From the NCBI RefSeq assembly GCF_900129025.1, contig NZ_FQUM01000006.1:1-64000 (forward strand): a DNA stretch of 64,000 nt. The letters are read 5' to 3'. The notes under the pieces are model-generated. The model was not told the origin of the DNA. It saw only the letters and a program-made list of their open reading frames with translations, and made no database searches. The position numbers and the translations under genes were made by a program. This document shows, in pieces, positions 1,217-43,521 of the stretch (position 1 is its first letter; every line of letters begins with the position of its first letter). Origin of the DNA: Mariniphaga anaerophila. GTDB lineage: Bacteria > Bacteroidota > Bacteroidia > Bacteroidales > Prolixibacteraceae.

Positions 1217-1335
1217 ATGAAACGAACATGGATTTTCTCAATTCAAAAGTCATAATAAGAAATGAGTAAATTTATGTGAGTTCCTGAATGTCTTCAAATT
1301 TATTGAACATTCAGAAATCAAAAAATTTTATACAG
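1217..1335 (+). repeat. leader repeat, copy 1 (upstream of pyrC)
   Basis: This is one of three copies of a leader of about 120 bp found in the window; the others are at 26424-26532 and 42607-42726. It begins ATGAAACGAACATG and ends ATTTTATACAG immediately before the pyrC ATG. Hand alignment with copy 3 gives about 16 differences over 120 positions. A hairpin lies at 1284-1314: CTGAATG pairs with CATTCAG, a two-base bulge (TC) follows, and TTCAA pairs with TTGAA around a five-base loop. It ends 21 nt before the start codon. The element reads like a transcribed 5' leader or a dispersed repeat; its function is unknown. Confidence 0.85.
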
Positions 1336-2679
1336 ATGAAAAAACTCATCAAAGAAGCAACCATAGTCAACGAAGGACTGAAGTTTAAAGGGAGTGTTCT
1401 GATCGACAACAATACAATAGAAAAAGTATTTCCATACGCTGTTCCGAAAGACTTTGATTTTACAGGAGTAGAAATCATTGATGCAAGCGGCCTTTTACTA
1501 ATTCCAGGAGCAATAGACGACCAGGTGCATTTTAGAGAACCGGGGCTTACCTACAAAGGCGAGATTGCCACCGAAAGTCGGGCCGCAGTAGCAGGAGGCG
1601 TTACTTCGTACATGGAAATGCCAAACACCAAACCACAATCTGTAACCCAGGAAGAATTACAAAAGAAATACGACCGTGCGGCTGAAGTTTCACCGGCCAA
1701 CTACTCGTTTTACATGGGCGCAACCAACAATAACCTCGACGAAGTGCTTAAAACCGATCCCACAAAAGTGTGCGGCATTAAGGTTTTTATGGGCTCTTCA
1801 ACCGGCAACATGTTGGTTGACGACGAGAAAACACTGTCTGAGATATTTCAGAATGCGCCCACTTTAGTAGCCACCCATTGTGAAGACGAAGCTACCATTC
1901 AGAAAAACATTGCGATTGCAAAAGCCAGGTATGGAGAAAATGTGCCTGTTTCGCGCCATGCACATATTCGCAATGATGAAGCCTGCTACATATCTTCGTC
2001 AAAAGCAGTGGAGCTAGCTTCCAAATTCGACACACGCCTGCATGTACTGCACCTCTCCTCTGCAAAAGAGATGAGTTTATTTTCTCCCGGAACGGTAAAA
2101 AACAAAAACATTACTGCCGAAGTTTGTGTGCACCATTTGTGGTTCGACGAGCGTGACTACATCACAAAAGGCAATTATATAAAATGGAACCCTTCCATAA
2201 AAACGATAAAAGACAAAGAAGCTTTGTGGGATGCTTTGCTTTCCGATAAAATTGACGTGATTGCCACCGACCATGCGCCGCACACCCGTGAAGAAAAAAA
2301 CAACACCTATTTTAAAGCGCCGTCAGGCGGGCCGTTGGTTCAGCATTCTCTGACTGCCATGCTCGAAATGACAAACAAAGGTGTAATCTCAATAGAAAAA
2401 GTGATTCAGAAAATGTGTCATGCGCCGGCAGATCTGTTTCGTATCGACCGCCGCGGGTACATTCGCGAAGGATACTATGCTGATCTGGTGCTTATCGATC
2501 CGAATAAATCCTGGCAGGTTTCGCCAGAAAATATATTGTATAAATGTGGCTGGTCGCCATTCGAAGGCCAGGAATTTTCGCACCAGGTGGTTTCAACTTT
2601 TGTTAACGGCCAGGAAGTGTACAAAAACGGCGTGGTGCAAGACGGACTGACGGGGATGCGACTCAGTTTTCTGGCCTGA
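1336..2679 (+). CDS. pyrC: dihydroorotase
   Basis: This amidohydrolase cyclises N-carbamoyl-L-aspartate to dihydroorotate in pyrimidine synthesis, in the cytoplasm. The 447-residue protein has the metal-site segments in order: DDQVHFREPG at 61-70, the carboxylated-lysine region IKVFMGSS near 150, THCEDE near 180, HVLHLSS near 236, and the catalytic Asp region ATDHAPH near 308. The first His of the usual HxH pair is Gln here (DQVHF), a feature I recall in other Bacteroidota dihydroorotases. The frame stays open upstream to 1288, but that part is the repeated leader and translates to a peptide also found before an unrelated lipoprotein. The start is therefore ATG 1336, giving MKKLIKEATI. An allantoinase or dihydropyrimidinase role is less likely given the overall match. 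Confidence 0.92.
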   Translation: MKKLIKEATIVNEGLKFKGSVLIDNNTIEKVFPYAVPKDFDFTGVEIIDASGLLLIPGAIDDQVHFREPGLTYKGEIATESRAAVAGGVTSYMEMPNTKPQSVTQEELQKKYDRAAEVSPANYSFYMGATNNNLDEVLKTDPTKVCGIKVFMGSSTGNMLVDDEKTLSEIFQNAPTLVATHCEDEATIQKNIAIAKARYGENVPVSRHAHIRNDEACYISSSKAVELASKFDTRLHVLHLSSAKEMSLFSPGTVKNKNITAEVCVHHLWFDERDYITKGNYIKWNPSIKTIKDKEALWDALLSDKIDVIATDHAPHTREEKNNTYFKAPSGGPLVQHSLTAMLEMTNKGVISIEKVIQKMCHAPADLFRIDRRGYIREGYYADLVLIDPNKSWQVSPENILYKCGWSPFEGQEFSHQVVSTFVNGQEVYKNGVVQDGLTGMRLSFLA

Positions 2680-26423: not shown

Positions 26424-26532
26424 ATGAAACGAACGCGAGTTTTGTTCTTTTAACCTGCACAGGCCAGAATGACTAAAACTTATGTGAGTTGCTAAATACC
26501 GTTCTATTTTTGAACTTTCAAAAATCAAAAAG
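26424..26532 (+). repeat. leader repeat, copy 2 (degenerate)
   Basis: This is the most divergent copy of the repeated leader. It keeps ATGAAACGAAC at its left end, AATGACTAAAACTTATGTGA in the middle, GAGTTGCT, and TTTTTGAAC plus AAATCAAAAA near the right end. It ends at the lipoprotein ATG. It is shorter (109 bases) because the ATTTTATACAG block before the start codon is missing. The hairpin is reduced to GTTC/GAAC. Confidence 0.7.
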
Positions 26533-27189
26533 ATGAAACAGATAATTACACTTATTTCTGCTGCTACGCTGTTATTTACCTGCTCGCCCATCAATAAAAT
26601 AATAACCGTAAACGACGAATTTAAAAATGAAAAAAGCATTCGGCTTATCCAGTACCTCAAAGGATATTCTGACGAAGGCCCGGAAAGAATTGGAGGGTTA
26701 GACTACTGGGTAACTGTAAAAACAGTTTATTCAAAACCGGAAAACCAGGAAGGAATCGTTACGGCAGAATTCACCATAAAAACCGAATCCCGTCCTGAAG
26801 AACTCGATTCACTCATATTTCTGGAAGTAGACCAGACAAAGTATAAACTTTACTCGCACGAATATGCTTCGCGCCACGTTGTGAACCGCTCCACTTCCTC
26901 AAGCATTACCACTTCGATTGAAAAAGAAGACGACGAAGATGAGAGCAAAGACACCGAAAAAACTTCTACCACAACACAAGTCACAACAAGTGATGTAACC
27001 TTGCAGATTATGAAGCGAACCGTCGAAATCCCACGCGACATTTGGCACGAAATCAGCCGGATGCAACAAATCAGGCTCCGCCTGTACATTGCAACCGAAG
27101 GCATCACTGTTCATTTCAGTTCTAAAGACCGACGCAAGTTTGCAGAACTATTCCAGGAAATAAATAAGTTTGAAAGAGCCGAACCTTAG
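26533..27189 (+). CDS. putative lipoprotein of unknown function
   Basis: The 218-residue product starts with a lipoprotein signal ending at LLFTC, so Cys17 is probably lipidated. The rest is predicted mixed alpha/beta, with a Ser/Thr- and acid-rich low-complexity linker in the middle (runs of S and T, then EKEDDEDESKD). It has no family I recognise. Its start codon abuts copy 2 of the repeated leader, which suggests shared control with pyrC and the lipoprotein at 42727. It converges on the AmpG-like gene with seven bases between the stops. Confidence 0.65.
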   Translation: MKQIITLISAATLLFTCSPINKIITVNDEFKNEKSIRLIQYLKGYSDEGPERIGGLDYWVTVKTVYSKPENQEGIVTAEFTIKTESRPEELDSLIFLEVDQTKYKLYSHEYASRHVVNRSTSSSITTSIEKEDDEDESKDTEKTSTTTQVTTSDVTLQIMKRTVEIPRDIWHEISRMQQIRLRLYIATEGITVHFSSKDRRKFAELFQEINKFERAEP

Positions 27190-42606: not shown

Positions 42607-42726
42607 ATGAAACGAACATGAATTTTTTTCATTCAAAATTCACAAACAGGAATGATTAAAATTTATGTGAGTTGCTGAATGGCTTCAATTTTTTTGAACA
42701 TTCAGAAATTAAAAAATTTTATACAG
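42607..42726 (+). repeat. leader repeat, copy 3
   Basis: This is a near-complete copy of the repeated leader, starting ATGAAACGAACATGA and ending ATTTTATACAG right before ATG 42727. The hairpin at 42675-42705 has the same stem as copy 1 (CTGAATG/CATTCAG, then TTCAA/TTGAA). The bulge (GC instead of TC) and the loop (TTTTT instead of ATTTA) differ. As in copy 1 it ends 21 nt before the start codon. Confidence 0.85.
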
Positions 42727-43521
42727 ATGAAATTTTCGTTTTTTATCTCTGCCGTTTTACTGGCGTTAGTTATTGCCGGCTGCGGCCCTTCGGATGAAGA
42801 CAAAGCCCGGGTGAAGCTAAACCTTGCCCAGTCACTTTTGGAGAAAAATGATACAACTGCGGCATTGCGCCACCTGGATAGCATTCCGCGCCTGTACCCG
42901 AAAGCTGTTTACGCGCTGAACGCCGCCAAAAACCTGGTAAACGAAGTGCAGTTTGATTTGCTGCACCGCAAAGAAGCAGAACTCGACTCACTGAAAGTAA
43001 AAGTAGCAGAGCTGGAAAAACCTTTTAATAAAGAGAAAACGGAATTTGACCGCTACACCCAATATGTGCACAAACGCCAGACTTTTCAAAGGGCGTGGGA
43101 TCGCTCATACATTCAGGTGCATTTGGATGAACGGGGAGAGATTTACCTGAGCAGCAACTACCACGGAGAAAAATGGCTCGACCACACGGCACTGCGCGTT
43201 TACGACCAGGGTGATGATGCAAAAACGGAAGAGATTCCCATTGGTTCGCCCGACAACCACCGGAGCGATTTTATGGAGGCAAAATGGGAAAAAGTAAGCT
43301 ACCGAAACGGAAAAGATAACGGCGTAATGGAATTCATTGCCAACAACGCTGACCGCAACCTGAAAGCCGTTTTCCTGGGAAATAAATACTATTACATTAT
43401 TCTGGAAACATACGACAAACAGGCCGTGAAAGATGCACTTGCACTTTCAAAAGCACTGAAACAAAGAAGCAAGCTGCAAGCTGAAATAAACAGCTTGCAA
43501 AAGCAACTCAACATCAGCTAA
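42727..43521 (+). CDS. putative lipoprotein with coiled-coil segments
   Basis: The 264-residue product has a lipoprotein signal ending at VIAGC. A helical, TPR-like stretch follows (VKLNLAQSLLEKNDTTAALRHL), then a coiled coil (RKEAELDSLKVKVAELEK), a central beta domain of about 130 residues, and a C-terminal coiled coil (SKLQAEINSLQKQL). I do not recognise the family. An upstream in-frame ATG at 42679 lies in the repeated leader and encodes nearly the same peptide as the leader before pyrC, so I reject it. The gene end overlaps the convergent ppk1-arsC stop by four bases. Confidence 0.75.
   Translation: MKFSFFISAVLLALVIAGCGPSDEDKARVKLNLAQSLLEKNDTTAALRHLDSIPRLYPKAVYALNAAKNLVNEVQFDLLHRKEAELDSLKVKVAELEKPFNKEKTEFDRYTQYVHKRQTFQRAWDRSYIQVHLDERGEIYLSSNYHGEKWLDHTALRVYDQGDDAKTEEIPIGSPDNHRSDFMEAKWEKVSYRNGKDNGVMEFIANNADRNLKAVFLGNKYYYIILETYDKQAVKDALALSKALKQRSKLQAEINSLQKQLNIS

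What the first reader, a model, noticed from the sequence alone, without database searches (positions are those of the whole stretch)
1217..1335. A leader element of about 120 bp occurs three times, each ending exactly at a start codon
Copies at 1217-1335, 26424-26532 and 42607-42726 precede unrelated genes (pyrC and two lipoproteins). Copies 1 and 3 differ at about 16 of 120 positions by hand alignment, and all run in the direction of the gene. No transposase or target duplication is visible. This looks like a shared cis-regulatory 5' leader or a repeat family that inserts, or is kept, as a leader. I know of no described element with this sequence.
Basis: partly seen in the sequence, partly recalled or inferred. 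Interest (0 to 1): 0.75.

Follow-up and report, generated by a model that had tools for sequence, protein, structure and literature searches.

The report
Mobile leader element targeting start codons
A small structured piece of mobile DNA, found in many Bacteroidota, sits in the start codons of unrelated genes and brings a new start codon with it, so the genes can probably still be read; I found no description of such an element.

Summary
The three window copies are real and belong to a large, apparently undescribed family: 37 matches to a model of their type and 68 to a shorter-type model in this genome (overlapping sets), and copies mostly 84-95% identical in several families. It is mobile: of 23 and 20 genomes with pyrC and ilvN only this one carries it there; copies' closest relatives lie in the same genome (59 of 68); tandem copies share ATGAAA. 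It lies at ATGA(AA), mostly a start codon (140 of 162 unique copies; 42 of 49 in D. orientale), and its right end supplies the ATG. In the short type an internal guide GTTNCATnnnnn pairs with the left ATGAAAC and the right n'n'n'n'n'ATG, with compensatory changes, weaker in diverged copies. Downstream genes share no function. Conclusion: a non-autonomous, guide-bearing element homing on start codons, not a regulon leader. Enzyme unknown: Y1, IS110 and reverse-transcriptase genes are each missing from some carriers.

The parts
1217..1335 (+). Copy 1 of the element (119 nt), from the left ATGAAA to the base before the gene's ATG
1217..1222 (+). Left ATGAAA (old target site and left end of the element)
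   Evidence: also in most other copies
1226..1277 (+). Left hairpin P1 (ACATGGATTTT ... AAATTTATGT)
1280..1283 (+). GTTC, the place of the guide GTTNCATnnnnn of the short type; the CATnnnnn part is not present in this family
1284..1314 (+). Right hairpin P2 CTGAATG ... CATTCAG
1315..1341 (+). A-rich right end, ATACAG|ATGAAA, which supplies the start codon (predicted unpaired in the minimum-energy fold of the consensus-like copy L002)
1336..2679 (+). pyrC-like amidohydrolase that starts at the element's end
26424..26532 (+). Copy 2 (diverged, right end shortened)
26533..27189 (+). Gene after copy 2, no Pfam match
42607..42726 (+). Copy 3 of the element (120 nt)
42675..42705 (+). Right hairpin P2 of copy 3, CTGAATG ... 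CATTCAG
42727..43521 (+). Gene after copy 3, no Pfam match

Best explanation
The leader is a non-autonomous mobile element of about 95-125 nt whose usual insertion target is the start codon. Shown: it lies at ATGA, mostly ATGAAA, with one ATG at its left end and a new A-rich stretch plus ATG at its right end, so that the gene keeps a start; it is absent from the same genes of relatives, has multiplied inside genomes, sits in tandem and is spread over families. Shown for the short type: an internal guide GTTNCATnnnnn is complementary to the left end (ATGAAAC) and, overlapping at CAT, to the right end (n'n'n'n'n'ATG), so one strand can lay both ends side by side, and the same sequence matches the target. 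Inferred: the element moves as a folded single strand (sense strand), the guide aligns the two ATGs for cutting and joining and selects ATG-A-AA as target, and an enzyme encoded elsewhere does the chemistry. Inferred: hosts tolerate it because Bacteroidota use no Shine-Dalgarno sequence and the element brings its own A-rich start context. The rivals on the enzyme below are alternatives for that last step, not to mobility.
For: Copies in own genome: 37 (R1), 68 (R2), overlapping. Empty sites: pyrC in 22 of 22 other genomes with the gene, ilvN in 19 of 19; in 30 of these 41 the aligned first codon is ATG and in the other 11 an in-frame ATG lies within a few codons; 18 of 41 begin ATGAAA and 7 ATGAAG. 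Within-genome amplification: nearest neighbour in the same genome for 59 of 68 family-A copies, mean 12 and maximum 24 with shuffled labels. Tandem copies 121 nt apart sharing ATGAAA. Start codons: 140 of 162 unique copies; D. orientale 42 of 49, where of 136 ATGAAA sites that are starts, early in frame or intergenic at most 52 are starts (binomial p 2e-12, Fisher p 1.5e-9). Codon 2 is AAA in 125 of 139 copies against 44 of 297 genes of D. orientale and the window. Guide: 27 cells changed on both sides against 10.5 in shuffles, 0 of 500, slid versions at most 5; 52 of 83 copies pair at 4-5 of 5 variable positions against 21% with swapped partners; left C-G replaced by T-A in 7 of 83. Mean pairs fall from 4.55 of 5 in the 20 best-scoring copies to 3.35 in the last full bin and 3.0 in the last 3 copies, about 2.6 with swapped partners. 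No shared function downstream. Right end has A at -6 (128 of 139), -12 (132) and -13 (99), positions named for Flavobacterium in PMC6847099 (passages read).
Against: No enzyme found: in 52 Y1 transposase loci only one copy, 0.9 kb away. The window's own type (family A) lacks the full guide; its right hairpin's main helix has no two-sided change, and the number of pairs with two-sided change (11) is no higher than in slid versions (9-13); its support rests on the share of cells paired (91% against at most 51%) and the score. In the short type two measures do not exceed shuffles: pairs with two-sided change (6 against 4.4, 73 of 500) and pair types (11 against 11.3). The decline of pairing uses a profile built from 16 of the same copies, so its top bin is favoured. 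-3 is C in 101 of 139, not the favoured A. No replication-strand bias (31 of 52 co-oriented against about 60% of gene length, worked out by hand), which a lagging-strand mechanism would predict. 22 of 162 copies are not directly at an ORF start; of 21 such copies examined 17 lie upstream of a gene in sense. Fewer than half of the empty-site orthologues begin ATGAAA (18 of 41), so the second codon AAA may be brought by the element rather than be required of the target. Excision, circles or movement were not observed. Related rows inflate covariation scores.
Confidence: 0.78

Rival explanations
1. A conserved cis-regulatory RNA leader (riboswitch or attenuator): the right ATG is hidden by the guide and freed when the left ATG pairs instead, co-regulating many genes.
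For: Two mutually exclusive pairings, one of which covers the start codon; sense orientation at start codons; conserved structure.
Against: Downstream genes are unrelated; pyrC and ilvN carry it in one genome only of those compared; homologous genes carry different subfamilies; pairing is weaker in diverged copies; no Rfam match.
Confidence: 0.07
2. Enzyme step, IS200/IS605 kind: a miniature element cut and pasted as single-stranded DNA by a Y1 (HUH) transposase or a RAYT acting in trans; the guide is the analogue of their guide sequences.
For: Hairpins near the ends, no inverted repeats, a short target at the left and a similar site at the right; IS200/IS605 guides also choose cleavage sites by pairing (PMC8266576, passages read). 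15 of 17 carriers tested have a Y1 gene (G008, a further carrier with Y1, left out).
Against: G170 (14 matches) and G084 (4) have none at E<=0.001. Y1 is in 16 of 21 genomes without an R2 match (p 0.43); four of those 21 do match family A, and moving them gives 19 of 21 against 12 of 17 (p 0.21). No copies flank Y1 genes beyond one at 0.9 kb. No replication-strand bias. One long guide 3' of the left hairpin instead of tetranucleotides 5' of each hairpin.
Confidence: 0.27
3. Enzyme step, RNA level: the element inserts into mRNA at AUGAAA with its guide acting like an internal guide sequence, then is copied back into DNA.
For: Guide pairs with both junctions, as group I introns do (recalled); 17 of 21 non-start copies lie upstream of a gene in sense (p 0.007 against one half, 0.07 against 60%).
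Against: No RVT_1 reverse transcriptase at E<=1e-5 in carriers G079, G154, G170, G115, G052, G025, G003. The element is far smaller than a self-splicing intron. Right-half-only matches, which reverse transcription could leave, do exist (for example L028, L049, L107) but were not examined systematically; L027 and L030 keep a left-end remnant.
Confidence: 0.15
4. Enzyme step, folded single-strand site moved by a tyrosine recombinase, similar to integron attC sites without genes.
For: Left hairpin ATGAAAC-GA-GCATG ... CATGC-GA-GTTNCAT has AAC/GTT boxes and two paired segments like attC (resemblance recalled); tandem copies in phase.
Against: The right junction lies well beyond the right box, not in it; targets show no conserved flanks beyond ATGAAA. 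Integrases were not searched.
Confidence: 0.13
5. Enzyme step, IS110-like bridge-RNA recombination.
For: Guide complementary to the joined right and left ends, as a donor-binding loop is (PMC11208160, passages read).
Against: Transposase_20 is absent at E<=1e-5 from 12 of 18 carriers tested, among them the own genome, and from 23 of all 34 genomes.
Confidence: 0.02

Closest known systems
IS200/IS605 elements and their non-autonomous derivatives
   Same: Hairpins near the ends on one strand, no inverted repeats, short target at the left end, guides that pair with cleavage sites
   Different: One long guide serves both ends; target is mostly the start codon, which is rebuilt; no Y1 gene found in two carriers; no replication-strand bias
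REP elements with TnpA-REP (RAYT)
   Same: Small, structured, many copies, probably moved in trans
   Different: No GTAG tetranucleotide; not a single palindrome; mostly at start codons
MITEs
   Same: Short, non-autonomous, many copies, bursts within genomes
   Different: No terminal inverted repeats, no true target duplication, fixed orientation with respect to genes
IS110 / bridge RNA
   Same: Guide complementary to the joined ends
   Different: No recombinase gene in 12 of 18 carriers tested; far smaller; single guide
Integron attC sites
   Same: Folded hairpin with paired AAC/GTT boxes, in-phase tandem copies (resemblance recalled)
   Different: Different junction position and target; no cassettes seen
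HEARO / IscB elements (recalled, not tested beyond Rfam)
   Same: Recalled to insert at ATGA
   Different: Carry a longer RNA and an ORF; no Rfam match here

Membership tests
IS200/IS605 derivative | Hairpins near both ends on one strand | tested here: met
   family A; the short type has one hairpin plus guide pairing
IS200/IS605 derivative | Tetranucleotide guides 5' of each hairpin | tested here: not met
   guide is GTTNCATnnnnn, 3' of the left hairpin; definition from PMC8266576 passages
IS200/IS605 derivative | Y1 transposase in carriers | tested here: inconclusive
   15 of 17 carriers tested have one, G170 and G084 none
IS200/IS605 derivative | Bias to the lagging-strand template (recalled) | tested here: not met
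   31 of 52 co-oriented with replication, like genes; origin and terminus placed from GC skew only
REP/RAYT | GTAG-type tetranucleotide beside a palindrome | tested here: not met
   absent from the consensus sequences; definition from PMC8266576 passages
MITE | Terminal inverted repeats | tested here: not met
   ends are ATGAAACGAAC and AAACAGATGAAA
MITE | Target-site duplication | tested here: not met
   right ATGAAT, ATGAAG or ATGAGA with left ATGAAAC
IS110 / bridge RNA | Transposase_20 recombinase in carriers | tested here: not met
   absent from 12 of 18 carriers, the own genome included
Retroelement | Reverse transcriptase in carriers | tested here: not met
   no RVT_1 in 7 carriers at E<=1e-5
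Known RNA family (Rfam 15) | Match to a covariance model | tested here: not met
   only a tRNA in the window at gathering scores; one sub-threshold microRNA match in six loci
Cis-regulatory leader of a regulon | Functionally related downstream genes | tested here: not met
   146 families among 133 proteins, top family 5
Cis-regulatory leader of a regulon | Ligand or expression response | not testable with these tools
   needs RNA-seq and reporter work
Integron attC | Junction in the right core box; integrase | tested here: inconclusive
   junction lies beyond the box; integrases not searched

The most novel reading that the evidence does not exclude
A new class of nucleic-acid-guided mobile element in Bacteroidota that homes on start codons in general: an internal 12-nt guide, complementary to the element's own joined ends, reads ATG-A-AA by base pairing, and an enzyme outside the Y1, IS110 and reverse-transcriptase classes inserts it so that translation is kept. 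Any gene that starts ATGAAA is then a safe site, as tRNA gene ends are for integrases.
Probability: 0.4. Interest if true: 0.92.

Novelty: new variant of a known kind. Interest (0 to 1): 0.8.

Why it matters
Small non-autonomous mobile elements are a known kind, but none that I know or could find aims at start codons and rebuilds them. The family has rewritten the 5' leaders of dozens of genes in the genomes with most copies, pyrC and ilvN among them, so it should be known before leaders of Bacteroidota are read as regulation or start codons are annotated. It is a natural experiment on translation without Shine-Dalgarno sequences. If the guide selects the target by pairing, it is a compact target-reading device, and the missing enzyme is a defined search problem.

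Tried and rejected
Rfam at both thresholds: no family. Leader-peptide idea (left ORF MKRT then stop): not favoured, because the left frame runs on in some copies and copies differ by single-base indels. Six-base target duplication: rejected by right ends ATGAAT, ATGAAG, ATGAGA with unchanged left end. Longer, autonomous version: models of the left and right halves over the 184 sequences then held (0.93 Mb) showed no widely spaced pair to the eye. Y1 neighbourhood: 22 loci with nhmmer (family A) and R2 and 30 more loci, not all Y1 places, with R2 only: one hit, 0.9 kb from a Y1 gene in G101, taken as chance. RVT_1 and Transposase_20 as common enzymes: rejected. Viral contigs, exact 20-base pattern, and plasmids, blastn at E<=1e-5: no match. 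Promoter box TAnnTTTG in 150 nt upstream of the left ATG: 18 of 139 against 10.6 shuffled, not informative. Strand of folding from G-T against A-C mismatches: 83 to 31 in family A, 7 to 2 in the short type, favours the sense strand only weakly, and one pair that is G-U in most rows makes up 29 of the 83. A first parse of guides used a wrong pattern and is void; redone. The 400 kb sample of D. orientale was placed away from known copies, so its single R2 hit is no density estimate. Papers: searches showed no report of this element in the listings I saw (of only titles and abstract starts; one search listed 12 of 36); three papers were read as passages, none whole.

Rows dropped before counts: 451 hits, 272 after merging, 225 with both ends parsed, 162 unique; of the 22 not at an ORF of 50 aa or more about 7 are tandem copies and one (L242) is a misparsed end. 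In one search only copies whose guide and ends fitted loose patterns were kept (83). The 21 non-start copies were gathered by hand, tandem copies left out; gene calls there are crude ORFs, and for L044 the next gene is 513 nt away behind an opposite ORF. One search used 52 places typed, whose list was cut. Proteins were ORFs of 100 aa or more, cut at 260 aa. Zeros are lower bounds: 27 candidates per genome were scored.

Full report
Observation. Copies 1 and 3 are 87% identical over 122 nt; copy 2 is more diverged. Each also begins with ATGAAA. The window is the start of a 399 kb contig of a 5.05 Mb genome.

Copies. A DNA search of the own genome gave 42 matches at E<=10, 31 of them below 1e-4. 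Of 40 genomes searched, the own one included, 22 had a match at E<=0.01. A 24-base pattern hit 58 stretches of the GTDB collection, mostly Prolixibacteraceae but also Flavobacteriaceae, Cyclobacteriaceae, Labilibaculum, a Marinilabiliaceae genome, Lentimicrobium and Paludibacter MAGs and a MAG filed as Chlorobiota; most are 84-95% identical to the consensus over its 126 nt, the lowest 78%. A covariance model of this type (R1, 39 sequences) found 37 matches in the own genome and 29 in Draconibacterium orientale, most of the weaker ones being a shorter type of about 100 nt. A model of that type (R2, 16 sequences) found 68 matches in the own genome, 65 in D. orientale, and 54, 33, 24, 16, 11 and 0 in six others (E<=0.01, 150 candidates scored per genome), and at least one in 28 of 148 genomes drawn from the order (E<=1e-4, lower bounds). 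R2 also finds the three window copies, so I treat both types as one family.

Mobility. Of 23 genomes with pyrC only the own one has the element in front of it, and of 20 with ilvN likewise. Of the 41 empty orthologues 30 have ATG at the aligned first codon and all have an in-frame ATG within a few codons; 18 begin ATGAAA and 7 ATGAAG. So the ATG after the element is at or very near the gene's own start. Four further empty sites are less close: L267, L269, L066 and L038 against orthologues starting ATGAGA, ATGAGA, ATGCAA and ATGGAA. Family-A copies are closest to copies of the same genome in 59 of 68 cases, 12 on average with shuffled labels. Head-to-tail copies 121 nt apart share one ATGAAA, and tandem copies occur in other families. 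Homologous genes of different genomes can carry different subfamilies, that is, independent insertions. One copy travels on a metal-efflux segment 94-99.5% identical between four genera.

Target. Of 162 unique copies 140 end at the ATG of an ORF of at least 50 codons. In D. orientale 42 of 49 do, 1 is tandem and 6 are not; of 20 further own-genome copies 18 do; of 20 from eight genomes of seven other families 12 do, 3 are tandem and 5 do not. Purging of insertions inside genes does not explain this alone: in 400 kb of D. orientale 35 to 52 of 509 ATGAAA sites are starts, 84 are intergenic and the rest lie inside crude gene calls; 42 of 48 against 52 of 136 has a binomial p of 2e-12 and a Fisher p of 1.5e-9. 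Codon 2 is AAA in 125 of 139 copies against 44 of 297 genes, with no clear preference at the next base; whether AAA is required of the target or partly brought by the element is open. Of 21 non-start copies 17 have the next gene in sense; p is 0.007 against one half but 0.07 against 60%, so this is only suggestive.

Anatomy. Family A can fold into two hairpins, P1 and P2. On 39 sequences 91% of cells pair and 22 cells are changed on both sides against 7.6 in shuffles, but pairs with two-sided change (11) are no more than in slid versions (9-13) and the P2 main helix has none. In the short type the anatomy is clearer: ATGAAAC-GA-GCATG ... CATGC-GA-GTTNCAT-nnnnn ... n'n'n'n'n'-ATGAAA. The 8 bp between CATnnnnn and n'n'n'n'n'ATG show repeated compensatory changes (CTTAT/ATAAG, ACGAT/ATCGT, CTGTT/AACAG, ATGAC/GACAT and others): 27 cells changed on both sides against 10.5 in shuffles and at most 5 (+) or 5 (-) in slid versions, while two other measures do not exceed shuffles. 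Left ATGAAAC pairs with GTTNCAT over the same CAT, usually with a mismatch at A4, and in 7 of 83 copies C-G has become T-A. The guide is therefore complementary to the element's right and left ends joined together, and to the target. Paired positions fall from a mean of 4.55 of 5 in the 20 copies that fit the sequence profile best to 3.35 in the last full bin and 3.0 in the last 3 copies; about 2.6 is reached with swapped partners. That is expected if pairing serves movement and not the host, with the reserve that the profile was built from 16 of these copies. The window's own type lacks CATnnnnn, so for it the guide step is inferred from the relatives.

Translation. The right end has A at -6, -12 and -13 in 128, 132 and 99 of 139 copies, but C at -3 in 101. 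In Flavobacterium johnsoniae A at -3 and upstream adenines (-6, -12, -13 are named) and lack of structure go with initiation, and the phylum lacks Shine-Dalgarno sequences (PMC6847099, passages read). An element that pushes the old leader about 100 nt away is thus tolerable there; this is inference.

Enzyme. Y1 transposase genes are in 15 of 17 carriers tested but not in G170 (14 matches) or G084 (4), and in 16 of 21 genomes without an R2 match (p 0.43); four of these 21 match family A and moving them gives 19 of 21 against 12 of 17, p 0.21. The own genome has a single, RAYT-like Y1 (the label RAYT is recalled). Reverse transcriptases are missing from seven carriers and IS110 transposases from 12 of 18. 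D. orientale copies show no replication-strand bias (31 of 52). The enzyme is unknown; loss after a burst could hide it in any one genome, and only these three classes were searched.

Function downstream. 133 proteins match 146 Pfam families, the commonest being SusD-like with 5, against a regulon. Seven literature searches gave no description of the element in the listings seen; most subscription papers are not held, so this is not proof of novelty.

Verdict. I rate it a new variant of a known kind (small non-autonomous mobile elements), with a fair chance that the guide and the unknown enzyme make it more than that.

Noticed in passing
L086, L087, L193, L194, L198, L292: Palindromes of the type CTGCC..GGCAG or CAGCTG sit inside loops or the guide of some copies, apparently a second palindromic repeat family nested in this one.
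   Followed up: no
L074, L076, L111, L067 (element before a P-II-like gene): A metal-efflux segment of about 3-5 kb with an element copy is 94-99.5% identical between Mangrovibacterium, a Lentimicrobium MAG, a Paludibacter MAG and a Marinilabiliaceae genome, a likely route of spread.
   Followed up: partly
L036, L043, L193, L195 and L199: Subfamilies with a similar left half but a different right half (GTGAGAGCGGAGCGGTTNCATCCGTT and the like) suggest recombination between element halves.
   Followed up: partly
L242, L247: Longer copies (138-165 nt) in the own genome with extra sequence between guide and right end.
   Followed up: no
L123:1324-1854: The own genome's only Y1 transposase is a RAYT-like protein near a sugar-nucleotide dehydrogenase-like gene (by eye); no convincing element within 1.5 kb.
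   Followed up: partly
G079 C278, L360: Unusually long Y1 open frames (about 280-310 aa) in some relatives.
   Followed up: no
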